NCBI GenBank assembly: GCA_028709785.1
Contig: JAQUTK010000002.1
Coordinates: 62,001 to 126,000 of the forward strand
Reading direction: 5' to 3'
From: Bacteroidales bacterium
Lineage (GTDB): Bacteria; Bacteroidota; Bacteroidia; Bacteroidales; JAQUTK01
Length of the DNA: 64,000 nt
Each line of letters begins with the position of its first letter. The first letter of the stretch is position 1. The notes under the pieces were generated by a model. The model did not search any database. It was not told where the DNA came from and was given only the letters and a program-made list of their open reading frames with translations. Below, piece by piece: positions 25,962 through 31,134 of the stretch. Position numbers and translations under genes: made by a program.

Positions 25962-26606
25962 TTAGAGAACAGACGTTTTGATGGATTGCATCAGGACTAG
26001 TTTTGATTCTGGTCCCATGTTGAAAAGTATGTCGATAATACTGAGATTCGGAAGAAAACCATAGCGGGAGGTGAATACCTGATAATAGAACGGAGAGTTG
26101 AAAGCAGGATCAGTAATGGAATCCTTTCCGGGTTGGATCATTTCCCGGTAGTCTTCAAAATCAATCTTGTCTGGTGTCAGATATTCGGAAGTGTAATGAA
26201 TGTCTGGTTGGATATCGATAAGCGTACAAATAAGTTCGCGCAACTGCTCATTCATGTCAAGCAGGAAGGTATATTTCTTCGTATAAAAGGGCGCGAAATC
26301 ATCTTGGTAATACTCAAAAAAAGGCGTCGAATTGTATGCGGATATAATCGCATTCCAATGTAAATGCCGCCAGTTACCATGATCTGAAATACGGATATCT
26401 TTCGTCGGGGAATTAGGCGTGGTTGGTTTAACCACAGGAATAGAAAGTGTCAGTGGACCGTTGGCTCCGGCGATAACACAGCGGTTACGATAACTCTGCT
26501 TGATATAGTTTTCGTTGATTTCGATATAGACCGGTGTATCAGATATCAGCTTCGAATAATACTGAACAGGAGCAAGATAGTTGGATGTCAGACAGGTTGC
26601 TTTCAT
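25962..26606 (-). CDS. WbqC family protein
   Basis: 214 residues, WbqC-like family. Proteins of this family lie in O-antigen or cell-surface clusters in some genera and are conserved near signal peptidase genes in Bacteroidota; the biochemical role is unknown. Family blocks seen here are TSNYLAPVQYYSKLI at the N-terminus and NWRHLHWNAIISAYNSTPFF in the middle. No signal peptide or membrane segment. It starts 7 nt after the small signal peptidase paralogue, in the unit dapB-lepB-lepB2-wbqC. Confidence 0.88.
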   Translation of the reverse strand: MKATCLTSNYLAPVQYYSKLISDTPVYIEINENYIKQSYRNRCVIAGANGPLTLSIPVVKPTTPNSPTKDIRISDHGNWRHLHWNAIISAYNSTPFFEYYQDDFAPFYTKKYTFLLDMNEQLRELICTLIDIQPDIHYTSEYLTPDKIDFEDYREMIQPGKDSITDPAFNSPFYYQVFTSRYGFLPNLSIIDILFNMGPESKLVLMQSIKTSVL

Positions 26607-26613
26607 TGTTATA

Positions 26614-27633
26614 TCAACGAACTATTTGAAAGAATCTATTCCAACGAAAATAACTTTTTGGAGTCCCATAGGTAGAAACTGAAAACCAGATTGAACTAGC
26701 TTTACTGATGATATTTGTTTCAGGTACTAAACCATAACAACGTGAGTCACTCTGTGCTTCTCTGTTATCAGATAGCATCCAATAGTAGTTGTATTTAAAC
26801 GTATAAGAGGTAATCTTTTTACTGTTCACATAGATATTATTTCCCATCTTCAAAGCCCTGACGGGTTCGTAACAACAAATAATAGTTTCATAACGTTCGA
26901 TATTATCCGGTGTCAGTTTGATTGTCATATTTCTGGCCGGTATTACTATCGAAGTCATCTTTCCGGGAAGAGAATAAGGCAACAAAGCGATTGATTTGGG
27001 CAAATCTTCTTTGATTTTATAGAACTCAAGACGGTTGAGCAAACAAAAGGCCAGAGAGTCTCTTTGTTTGTGAAAGATTTGAAAGGGACCACCTTCAGAT
27101 GCTTTCAAAACATTCTTTATTTCTTTGATTTCAGAATAAGGAAATGAATAAAACTTCTTAACCAATGGGCTTTCTAATGTTGATTTACCGTTGATGACAA
27201 CAGGAAACGAAATCTTTTCATCAAACTGTAACTTGTCACCGGGAAGTCCTGCAATGCGACTGATTTCTATTTTTTGCTTATCAAGCGGCACATCTGTTTT
27301 TCTTTGAGACGGTCTGTTGAATAATACAACATCGTTGCGTTTTGCCATCATCTTTCCTATCCGAAAGTAAGGAAGCTGTAAGCGTGAAGAGTATGCTTTA
27401 GTACCTAAGAAATGAATAGAATCATGTGTAAATGGTATGGAAAGCAATGTTTGTGGCAAACGAACGCCATAACTTATTTTGGAAGCGATGATATAGTCAC
27501 CCGGAAGTAGACTATCTTCCATACAAGAAGAGGAGATTCTGAATGAACCAAACAGAAAACAACGGATTAACAGGGCAAAGCTAACGGCTATTGCCACTGT
27601 AATCCATCTTCTTATATGTGATTTCTTTTTCAA
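26614..27633 (-). CDS. Signal peptidase I paralogue lacking both catalytic residues
   Basis: 339 residues, S26 fold, one N-terminal membrane segment (about 10-29). Aligned to its neighbour and to E. coli LepB, the nucleophile Ser that precedes Met is Cys37 (SSSCMEDSLL), and the general-base Lys of the KRxxGLPGD block is Ser125 (EISRIAGLPGD). The codons are TGT and AGT. The rest of the fold is kept, including GDY, RNDVVLFN and box E SDNREAQSDSR, so this is not a decayed gene. It starts with TTG, whose TTGA overlaps the stop of the active lepB, so it is translated with it. Possibly a partner or regulator of LepB. Confidence 0.9.
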   Translation of the reverse strand: MKKKSHIRRWITVAIAVSFALLIRCFLFGSFRISSSCMEDSLLPGDYIIASKISYGVRLPQTLLSIPFTHDSIHFLGTKAYSSRLQLPYFRIGKMMAKRNDVVLFNRPSQRKTDVPLDKQKIEISRIAGLPGDKLQFDEKISFPVVINGKSTLESPLVKKFYSFPYSEIKEIKNVLKASEGGPFQIFHKQRDSLAFCLLNRLEFYKIKEDLPKSIALLPYSLPGKMTSIVIPARNMTIKLTPDNIERYETIICCYEPVRALKMGNNIYVNSKKITSYTFKYNYYWMLSDNREAQSDSRCYGLVPETNIISKASSIWFSVSTYGTPKSYFRWNRFFQIVR

Positions 27634-29054
27634 TCAGCGGCAGCTAAATTATCTACCCAATCGAATAATCGACTGAAACGAATCTTGCCATCAAACCACC
27701 CTCTGTCTTTGTCCAACGAAAGCCAAACCATAATAGGTTTTCCTACAATGTGATCTTCCGGTACAAAACCCCAATAGCGGGAATCTGCAGAGTTATGACG
27801 GTTGTCGCCCATCATCCAGTAATAATCCATTTTGAATGTGTAGGAACTTGCTTCTTTCCCATTAATGAATATCCGCCCCTCCTTAACTTTTAACTGATTT
27901 TCTTCATAAACGCGGATGATTCGCTCATAGATTGGAAGATTTTCTGCTGTCAGTTGAATGGATGCGCCTTTGGATGGAATCCAGATCGGACCATAATTAT
28001 CACGTGACCAACCCGTTTGAACACCAATAGGATAAGTGAAATCGAAAGTAGATGCCAGCTGAGCAGCCTCTTGTTCCGGAACAGAGAAGTCACTAACTAA
28101 AGTTTTGTAACGATCTGCACTGGTAGCAGGTTCCAAGGAGACAACAGACACATAATCTAAACGCTTTAGTGTTTCAAGCGCTTTTTGAGTCAAAGGAATA
28201 CGATAGATCGGTTTTGGAGAATTTGAAATCATTTTCTGATCTTCCTTGGATATACTCATCGAACGGAAATCTTCTTTTGAGAAATGTTTTCCGTTTGTTT
28301 GAATATAATAGCAGAACTGAGCATTCTTTGGAGTCTTTTGTTTTTCTCCGTTGATATAAATGATATTGTCTTTGATCTGAAGAGTTTCATTCGGAAGTCC
28401 CACGCAACGTTTCACATAATTCTCGCGGCGGTCAACCGGTCTGTAAATGATATCACCGAAGTCTTCTTTATTTGAGTTTACGACGTTTCTCCCATAAACA
28501 GCAGATAAGGTGTAATAATCGGCTGACATTTCATATTTGACCGCAACCGTATCACCGGCAGGAAAATTGAAGACTACAATATCGTTACGTTTGATAGAGC
28601 CTGTTCCAAGTAAACGTTTGTAATCCAAGTGAGGGAATTCAATGTATGATTTACAATTGAAAACCGGCAAGGTGTGCTGCGCTAACGGGAATGAAAGCGG
28701 AGTATTCGGAACCCTTGGTCCATAGCTAAGCTTACTAACAAACAGGTAATCTCCCACAAGCAAGGACTTTTCAAGAGAAGAACTTGGTATCTGATAATTT
28801 TGGAAGAAGAACGTGTTTATAAAATAGACGGCAACCAATGCAAAAACTATAGCATCTACCCACTCCATTACCTTTTTGAAGGCAACATTCTTCGATTTTC
28901 TCCAAAAACCGTATGGGATAAACTTTGTGAGATAGATATCAATGATAAGCAGTTCGCCAACCAAGATCCAATAATTGCCCATCCACGCAACAAACGCAAG
29001 ATAAAGTAGCGTGGCTATCCCAAACTTTATCCACTGTTTTTTAGAGAAGTTCAT
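27630..29054 (-). CDS. lepB: Signal peptidase I
   Basis: 474 residues, longer than the E. coli enzyme. Membrane segments at about 11-45 and 65-83 anchor it, with the catalytic domain in the periplasm. The nucleophile is Ser93 (IPSSSLEKSLLVGD, Ser before Leu where most LepB have Met) and the general base is Lys215 (ENYVKRCVGLPNE). Box E MGDNRHNSADSRYWGFVPE is intact. An insertion of roughly 45 residues separates box C from box D, common in Bacteroidota LepB. It cleaves Sec and lipid-free signal peptides, including those of T9SS components and cargo. Second gene after dapB. Confidence 0.94.
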   Translation of the reverse strand: MNFSKKQWIKFGIATLLYLAFVAWMGNYWILVGELLIIDIYLTKFIPYGFWRKSKNVAFKKVMEWVDAIVFALVAVYFINTFFFQNYQIPSSSLEKSLLVGDYLFVSKLSYGPRVPNTPLSFPLAQHTLPVFNCKSYIEFPHLDYKRLLGTGSIKRNDIVVFNFPAGDTVAVKYEMSADYYTLSAVYGRNVVNSNKEDFGDIIYRPVDRRENYVKRCVGLPNETLQIKDNIIYINGEKQKTPKNAQFCYYIQTNGKHFSKEDFRSMSISKEDQKMISNSPKPIYRIPLTQKALETLKRLDYVSVVSLEPATSADRYKTLVSDFSVPEQEAAQLASTFDFTYPIGVQTGWSRDNYGPIWIPSKGASIQLTAENLPIYERIIRVYEENQLKVKEGRIFINGKEASSYTFKMDYYWMMGDNRHNSADSRYWGFVPEDHIVGKPIMVWLSLDKDRGWFDGKIRFSRLFDWVDNLAAAD

Positions 29055-29063
29055 ATCTTTAGA

Positions 29064-29780
29064 TTAAAAAGTGAGCATATCTTTCATTCCTAAAAGTCCT
29101 TTTTTACCACAAGTAAATTCTGCGGCAAGCACAGCTCCCATGGCTAATCCTCTACGGTTTTTAGCATCATGTTTGATGGTGATAGTGTCAGCCTCAGATT
29201 CATAGTTGATAATGTGAATTCCAGGAACAGCACCTTCACGGATAGAATGAATAGCGAGCTCGTTGGCTGACTCTTCCACTTCTTTCACCCATTTATCTTT
29301 ATGTTCCACATTTTCAAGAATGCCTTCGGCAAGAGTGATTGCTGTGCCGCTTGGAGCATCCAGCTTTTGTGTGTGGTGAACCTCTGTCATGGAGATGTTA
29401 TACTCCGGAAAATGATTCATAATCCGGGCAAGATATCTGTTAAGCGCAAAGAAGATGTTGACTCCAAGGCTAAAGTTGGATGCCCAAAAGAACGTTTTCC
29501 CTTCTTTTTCAACAATGGTTTTTATTTCATCCCACTGGCTATTCCAGCCGGTAGTTCCGGAAACAAGCGCAACTCCCGATTTAAAACAACGTTTGTAGTT
29601 GTCAACTGCAACAGCAGGTGAGGTAAATTCTATGGCAACATCAGCACTTCGGAACTCCTCCGAATCAATGTCATCGATATTGTTAATATCAATGATAGAA
29701 ACAATTTTGTGACCGCGGGAAAGGGCTATCTGTTCGATCTCTTTGCCCATCTTTCCATATCCAATCAAAGCTATGCGCAT
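29064..29780 (-). CDS. dapB: 4-hydroxy-tetrahydrodipicolinate reductase
   Basis: 238 residues from ATG 29780; 27 further codons upstream to 29861 overlap the divergent gene and promoter and are not used. Cytoplasmic NAD(P)H reductase of lysine/diaminopimelate synthesis. Dinucleotide motif IGYGKMGKE at the N-terminus, active-site EVHHTQKLDAPSGTA and the VSGTTGW block are intact. Leads the unit dapB-lepB-lepB2-wbqC. The pairing of dapB with lepB is common in Bacteroidota. Confidence 0.95.
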   Translation of the reverse strand: MRIALIGYGKMGKEIEQIALSRGHKIVSIIDINNIDDIDSEEFRSADVAIEFTSPAVAVDNYKRCFKSGVALVSGTTGWNSQWDEIKTIVEKEGKTFFWASNFSLGVNIFFALNRYLARIMNHFPEYNISMTEVHHTQKLDAPSGTAITLAEGILENVEHKDKWVKEVEESANELAIHSIREGAVPGIHIINYESEADTITIKHDAKNRRGLAMGAVLAAEFTCGKKGLLGMKDMLTF

Positions 29781-29811
29781 AATCTTATAGTTTATAAAGA
29801 GAATTATGACG

Positions 29812-29819
29812 CAAAGGTA
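29812..29819 (-). promoter_or_regulatory. -7 promoter box of dapB-lepB-lepB2-wbqC
   Basis: TACCTTTG on the minus strand, 32 nt upstream of the chosen dapB ATG; supports the shorter start. Confidence 0.5.
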
Positions 29820-29831
29820 TAAAATATTATC

Positions 29832-29839
29832 TACTTTTG
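29832..29839 (+). promoter_or_regulatory. -7 promoter box of the DUF2851 gene
   Basis: TACTTTTG, 21 nt upstream of ATG 29860, back to back with the dapB promoter. Confidence 0.5.
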
Positions 29840-29859
29840 TCTCTATATAAAAGCGAAAC

Positions 29860-31134
29860 ATGGAGAAACTCCTGACGTATGTATGGAAGCATAAATTAAT
29901 GCTTCAGCATCAACAAACCACGACTGACGGCTGTACATTGGAAATTATTGATCCCGGGTTGTATAATTCAGACGCCGGACCCGACTTTTTTAATGCAAAG
30001 GTTCGAATTGATGGTGTTATGTGGGCAGGAAATGTTGAAATCCATACAAAGTCATCTGATTGGTTTCGCCATCACCACGAAGATGATCCGGCATACAATT
30101 CCGTCATCCTTCATGTTGTAGGAGAAATGGATCGGGAAGCGATTTGCCAGAATGGTCATCATCCATCTCATTATATTCTTTCTTGTCCTGAGGTTATCCG
30201 CACTAATTATTCCAACTTAACAACAAAAGAAGGATGTGTGTGTCACTCCAAACTTTCTTTGCTTGAACCCGTTCTTATCTCTTCCTGGAAATCGGCACTG
30301 ATGGCTGAAAGGCTTGAACGAAAGACTTCGTCAATCGTTGCACAGTTGGAACGCAACAAGGATGATTGGGAAGAGGTCCTTTATCAGACGCTCGGACGTT
30401 ATTTTGGTTTTGGAATCAACAATGACCTTTTTGAACAACTGATTCGTTCAATACCTTTGTCCTGTATTCGAAAGCACCGGAATAATCTGTTACAGATTGA
30501 GGCGCTGTTTTTTGGTCAGGCCGGTTTGTTGGTTCGAGAAGTGCTTCATGACAGATATGCTGAAGATCTGAAAAATGAATATGAGTTTTTGCAACACAAG
30601 TTTGGACTAGTTCCGTTAGAGAATCCTTTATGGAAGATGCTTCGAATCAGACCAGATAATTTTCCGCATGTTCGAATTGCCGAACTCGCAGCATTCGTGC
30701 AGAAATCAGAGAACCTGTTTTCAAAGATTATCGAAGCAGAGACTCTGAATGATTTCCGTTCACTTTTCAAAGTAGCCGCTTCACGCTATTGGGATACCCA
30801 TTTCAGCTTTACTCATGAATCTCCCCGTGTAGTAAAAAGTTTAGGAAAACGGGCCACAGATGTGTTGATTATCAATGTCGCTGTGCCGCTTTTATTTATT
30901 TACGGTCGCAACAACGATCGTTCTGATTTAGAAGAGCGCGCCTTTCAACTCTTGGAGTCATTACCTCCTGAACAAAATTATATTATCTATTCCTGGAGTT
31001 CTGCTGGTATGAAAGTGGAAAATGCTTTTGATTCGCAGGCTCTTATTCAGCTTCAAAAAGAATATTGTGACGTAAAAAAATGTTTGTGTTGCCGTTTTGG
31101 ACATAAATTATTGACTATTCCTCCATTAAATTGA
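29860..31134 (+). CDS. DUF2851 family protein
   Basis: 424 residues, member of the uncharacterised DUF2851 family found mainly in Bacteroidota. The N-terminal half carries the hallmark GPDFFNAKVRIDGVMWAGNVEIH, reminiscent of a PD-(D/E)xK-like beta sheet, and SYDWFRHHHEDDPAYNS-type spacing (here SSDWFRHHHEDDPAYNS). The C-terminal half is helical and ends in a Cys cluster, KKCLCCRFGHKLL, which could bind metal. No signal peptide. Function unknown. The following lipoprotein gene starts 24 nt beyond its stop. Confidence 0.85.
   Translation: MEKLLTYVWKHKLMLQHQQTTTDGCTLEIIDPGLYNSDAGPDFFNAKVRIDGVMWAGNVEIHTKSSDWFRHHHEDDPAYNSVILHVVGEMDREAICQNGHHPSHYILSCPEVIRTNYSNLTTKEGCVCHSKLSLLEPVLISSWKSALMAERLERKTSSIVAQLERNKDDWEEVLYQTLGRYFGFGINNDLFEQLIRSIPLSCIRKHRNNLLQIEALFFGQAGLLVREVLHDRYAEDLKNEYEFLQHKFGLVPLENPLWKMLRIRPDNFPHVRIAELAAFVQKSENLFSKIIEAETLNDFRSLFKVAASRYWDTHFSFTHESPRVVKSLGKRATDVLIINVAVPLLFIYGRNNDRSDLEERAFQLLESLPPEQNYIIYSWSSAGMKVENAFDSQALIQLQKEYCDVKKCLCCRFGHKLLTIPPLN

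What the first reader, a model, noticed from the sequence alone, without database searches (positions are those of the whole stretch)
26614..27633. Signal peptidase I paralogue with both catalytic residues replaced
The 339-residue S26 protein directly behind the active lepB has Cys37 for the nucleophile Ser (SSSCMEDSLL) and Ser125 for the general-base Lys (EISRIAGLPGD), while the neighbour keeps Ser93 and Lys215. The codons TGT and AGT were read directly. The box E and GDY blocks and overall length are intact, and its TTG start overlaps the lepB stop, so it appears maintained and co-translated. It may be a pseudoprotease that modulates LepB, a substrate chaperone for T9SS cargo, or an enzyme with altered chemistry. 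I do not know of a described example of this pair.
Basis: partly seen in the sequence, partly recalled or inferred. Interest (0 to 1): 0.72.

Follow-up and report, generated by a model that had tools for sequence, protein, structure and literature searches.

The report
Dead signal peptidase partner beside LepB
Behind the gene for the enzyme that trims export tags from proteins (LepB), this bacterium and many of its relatives, including Bacteroides fragilis, carry a preserved copy that has lost its cutting residues and probably works as a helper rather than as an enzyme.

Summary
The 339-aa S26 protein (26614-27633, minus) has Cys37 where E. coli LepB has Ser90, and Ser125 where it has Lys145. 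Its upstream neighbour lepB keeps Ser93/Lys215. The sister species, from a separate assembly, has the same two codons and the same TTGA overlap; dN/dS is 0.11, so this is neither sequencing error nor decay.

The Cys/Ser pair is probably not special chemistry. A short S26 paralogue directly behind lepB recurs across Bacteroidales. In an order-wide sample, 54 of 56 such copies lack one or both catalytic residues (25 family codes). Replacements are diverse (G/S in Bacteroides including B. fragilis, Q/S, Q/A, A/S, K/K and others), while the rest of boxes B-E stays largely conserved. Short copies not behind lepB mostly keep Ser/Lys (10 of 13). Cys was seen only in the window's genus. The model has the signal-peptidase fold and also matches Streptococcus SipA, an S26 protein shown to work without the dyad.

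Best reading: a membrane-anchored pseudo-signal-peptidase, co-translated with LepB, acting as a non-catalytic partner. The dead-paralogue kind is known (SpsA, SipA); I found no report of this Bacteroidales lineage. The T9SS idea fails as a general function: three genomes with the gene lack sprA.

The parts
26614..27633 (-). Pseudo-signal-peptidase, S26 family, 339 aa, TTG start
   Evidence: dN/dS 0.114 against the sister species
27523..27525 (-). Cys37 codon TGT, position of the Ser nucleophile
27259..27261 (-). Ser125 codon AGT, position of the general-base Lys
27630..27633 (-). TTGA overlap of the lepB stop and the pseudo-peptidase start, conserved in the sister species
27630..29054 (-). lepB, active type I signal peptidase, 474 aa, Ser93/Lys215
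29064..29861 (-). dapB, upstream neighbour, also found beside lepB in many relatives
25962..26606 (-). WbqC-like gene, downstream neighbour, conserved in 50 of 76 loci examined
   Evidence: name from memory of the family, not tested by profile

Best explanation
It is a pseudo-signal-peptidase: an S26-fold, membrane-anchored protein that cannot cleave by the Ser-Lys mechanism. It is encoded with LepB and probably works with it as a non-catalytic partner, holding or presenting preproteins, or stabilising or tuning LepB. Shown: both residues replaced, S26 fold predicted, gene kept under purifying selection, and inactivation as the rule for this operon slot in the Bacteroidales sampled. Inferred: co-translation (from the TTGA overlap), partnership with LepB (from operon linkage) and peptide binding (from the conserved rest of boxes B-E and the SipA precedent).
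For: Residue replacement by alignment to solved LepB. Same codons and overlap in the sister species, dN/dS 0.114 against 0.058 for lepB. In nine further dead pairs where dS could be estimated, dN/dS is 0.04-0.21. Behind lepB 54 of 56 copies are dead, elsewhere 3 of 13 (counted; Fisher p = 5e-8). In the 48-member dead clade Met38, Gly45, Pro60, Pro108, Arg126, Gly132, Tyr283 and Trp285 are invariant while positions 37 and 125 vary. The clade has 48 rows at SH-aLRT 98 in the quick tree, and its thinned form of 36 rows has 100/98 in the careful tree. Fold matches E. coli LepB at Z 12.2 and SipA at Z 11.6. The LepB next to these copies keeps Ser/Lys.
Against: No interaction, expression or phenotype data. 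Linkage to lepB could be left over from tandem duplication rather than reflect a complex. In SipA a mutation meant to occlude the cleft (V99R) did not stop function (PMC4049620), so a conserved cleft does not prove peptide binding. S. aureus SpsA is dispensable (PMC12445088).
Confidence: 0.55

Rival explanations
1. A dead S26 protein that acts on its own as a chaperone or assembly factor for particular envelope proteins, as SipA does for pili, without touching LepB.
For: SipA, with the same fold (Z 11.6) and also without the dyad, is essential for pilus polymerisation (PMC4049620). The dead copies evolve faster than LepB, which would fit changing clients.
Against: The gene stays beside lepB across many families, with diverse residues in the same operon slot; a client-specific chaperone would be expected to travel with its clients. 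No candidate client gene is conserved beside it apart from dapB and the WbqC-like gene.
Confidence: 0.27
2. An enzyme with altered chemistry, using Cys37 as nucleophile.
For: Cys is a possible nucleophile, and both species of the genus keep Cys37/Ser125.
Against: No Lys at the base position; Cys was seen in no other lineage; close relatives of the same clade have Gly, Gln, Ala, Thr or Ser there; the Gly272 and Ser278 equivalents are also lost.
Confidence: 0.04
3. A redundant duplicate that has lost function and is decaying.
For: Catalytic residues gone; dN/dS about twice that of lepB.
Against: dN/dS 0.114 at dS 0.6, open frame and overlap kept in the sister species; open frames kept in relatives across 25 family codes.
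Confidence: 0.05
4. A chaperone for cargo of the type IX secretion system (T9SS).
For: The window's genome has sprA.
Against: Three genomes of the Bacteroides family with the gene (G059, G164, G257) have no sprA, while G028 and G002 have sprA and gave no short full-length match in the survey.
Confidence: 0.02

Closest known systems
Staphylococcus aureus SpsA (with SpsB)
   Same: S26 paralogue lacking two conserved catalytic residues beside an active SpsB (PMC12445088; that the genes are adjacent is from memory)
   Different: Gram-positive; reported dispensable; no order-wide set of repeatedly inactivated copies that I know of
Streptococcus pyogenes SipA (PDB 4n31)
   Same: S26 fold with both dyad residues replaced (Asp48/Gly85), cleft kept, Gly272 and Ser278 equivalents also changed (PMC4049620); model matches at Z 11.6
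   Different: Encoded in pilus clusters, needed for pilus polymerisation, not paired with lepB; 14% identity in the Foldseek alignment
Bacteroidales LepB, type I signal peptidase
   Same: Homologous along its length, 28% identity to the window's LepB, same boxes B-E
   Different: LepB is longer, has extra N-terminal helices and an insert before the Lys, and keeps Ser/Lys

Membership tests
Peptidase family S26 (PF10502) by homology | Profile match above the curated cut-off | tested here: met
   87.9 bits against cut-off 22.9; TIGR02227 93.1 against 47
Peptidase family S26 (PF10502) by homology | Signal-peptidase fold | tested here: met
   AF2 mean pLDDT 79.8; Z 12.2 to E. coli LepB
Active type I signal peptidase (LepB) | Ser nucleophile in box B | tested here: not met
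   Cys37
Active type I signal peptidase (LepB) | Lys general base in box D | tested here: not met
   Ser125
Active type I signal peptidase (LepB) | Cleaves preproteins | not testable with these tools
   needs biochemistry
Non-catalytic S26 paralogue (SpsA/SipA kind) | Dyad replaced, fold kept, gene maintained | tested here: met
Non-catalytic S26 paralogue (SpsA/SipA kind) | Function that does not need the dyad | not testable with these tools
   needs genetics
SipA pilus assembly factor | Encoded in a sortase pilus cluster | tested here: not met
   neighbours are lepB, dapB and a WbqC-like gene

The most novel reading that the evidence does not exclude
In many Bacteroidales families signal peptidase I is a two-subunit machine: catalytic LepB plus a dead S26 subunit that selects or holds substrates, in which catalysis was lost by at least two separate routes (Lys lost in one clade; Ser lost with Lys often kept in the other).
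Probability: 0.3. Interest if true: 0.8.

Novelty: new variant of a known kind. Interest (0 to 1): 0.55.

Why it matters
Signal peptidase I is usually described as one self-sufficient enzyme in Gram-negative bacteria. A preserved dead copy in the same operon slot across many Bacteroidales families, including laboratory Bacteroides, would suggest either a two-part signal peptidase or an unknown envelope-assembly factor. Both can be tested by deletion and pull-down in tractable strains.

Tried and rejected
Sequencing error: rejected, same codons in an independent assembly of the sister species. Shifted alignment: rejected by phmmer to solved LepB and by the family alignment. Cys-based chemistry: disfavoured. 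T9SS-specific role: rejected as the general function. Literature on Bacteroidales dead signal peptidases: none found in nine searches of the open library; subscription papers and preprints are not held. The LepB model was of low confidence (pLDDT 68) and I drew no argument from it. Model coordinates were not readable in the script box, so side-chain geometry around Cys37 was not measured. An early tally row for L099 (a broken lepB piece) and one for L165:406-1629 were excluded from the counts.

Full report
Observation. The ORF at 26614-27633 (minus strand, 339 aa, TTG start) is an S26 protein by Pfam and NCBIfam. phmmer against solved E. coli LepB puts Cys37 on Ser90 and Ser125 on Lys145, with box E aligned as well. 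The upstream gene (27630-29054) keeps Ser93 and Lys215. The assembly holds no other S26 gene. The two genes share TTGA.

Not an error and not decay. The other sampled species of the genus (G001; the same contig appears as L035, JAQUZH010000009.1) has 86% identity, the same TGT and AGT codons and the same TTGA overlap. NG86 gives dS 0.60, dN 0.068, dN/dS 0.114; for lepB 0.058. Nine other dead pairs with measurable dS give 0.04-0.21, each higher than its lepB where that could be compared. So the gene is under purifying selection, looser than lepB.

Relatives. A scan of named genomes and order-wide searches (with loci) gave many short S26 ORFs. The scan used the pattern ISR[CI], which favours dead copies, so I counted rates only. 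There 54 of 56 short copies within 700 bases behind lepB lack Ser, Lys or both; of 13 short copies not behind lepB, 10 keep the pair (counted; Fisher p = 5e-8). The rows are not phylogenetically independent, and the profile was built from dead copies, so the p-value is only a guide and the survey is not a census. The dead copies span 25 family codes. Residue pairs differ by lineage: G/S in Bacteroides including B. fragilis (L095), Q/S in Barnesiella (L037), S/S in Candidatus Azobacteroides (L036), C/S only in the window's genus.

Evolution. In a tree built without the two catalytic columns, the short copies fall together against LepB, and the window's protein lies in a clade in which no member keeps the Lys: 48 rows at SH-aLRT 98, or 36 rows after thinning at 100/98 (its bootstrap had not fully settled). 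The other large group often keeps Lys but has lost Ser (R/K, K/K, L/K, N/K). Live short copies nest nearby, and supported branches force at least two changes between live and dead. So inactivation probably happened more than once; the exact number is not resolved. In one family (f23) a full-length LepB-like copy upstream of lepB has also lost the dyad, again with Ser at the Lys site.

What is conserved. Within the 48-member clade Met38, Gly45, Pro60, Pro108, Arg126, Gly132, Tyr283 and Trp285 are invariant and Asp296-Ser-Arg nearly so, while sites 37 and 125 vary, as do the equivalents of Gly272 and Ser278. This is the pattern described for SipA, where the loss of Lys145 removes the need for Gly272 (PMC4049620).

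Structure. The AlphaFold2 model (pLDDT 79.8, pTM 0.76) matches E. coli LepB (Z 12.2), S. aureus SpsB (Z 10.1) and SipA (Z 11.6) in the second look with VIA-align (Foldseek). Whole-length TM-scores are low (about 0.35 by query) because of inserts and domain placement, so the match rests on the core.

Mechanism. Best supported: a non-catalytic S26 protein acting with LepB (0.55). Steps shown: catalytic residues gone, fold predicted, gene maintained, operon slot conserved. Steps inferred: co-translation, contact with LepB, peptide binding. The main rival is an independent assembly factor of the SipA type (0.27). Cys chemistry, decay and a T9SS role are unlikely for the reasons given in the rivals; sprA is absent from three genomes that carry the gene.

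Novelty. Dead S26 paralogues are known: SpsA (PMC12445088) and SipA (PMC4049620). I found no description of this Bacteroidales lineage in the open library, which does not cover subscription journals or preprints. I rate it a new variant of a known kind.

Noticed in passing
L172:3873-5183, L165:406-1629, L179:470-1804 (family f23): Three S26 genes in tandem: a full-length LepB-like copy with the dyad lost upstream of the live lepB, and a short dead copy behind it.
   Followed up: partly
window protein residues 154-219 (within 26614-27633): The model contains a beta-alpha-beta-beta-alpha-beta insert with ferredoxin-like matches to PII-like proteins at Z 5-6; such Z values can mean only a common arrangement.
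   Followed up: partly
L143, L175: The only two short copies behind lepB that keep Ser/Lys.
   Followed up: no
L155, L157, L164: Dead short copies with no lepB found within 700 bases upstream.
   Followed up: no
LepB of the window's clade, 27630-29054: The residue after the nucleophile is Leu (SLEKS) instead of the usual Met in the LepBs that accompany the window's clade (47 of 47).
   Followed up: no
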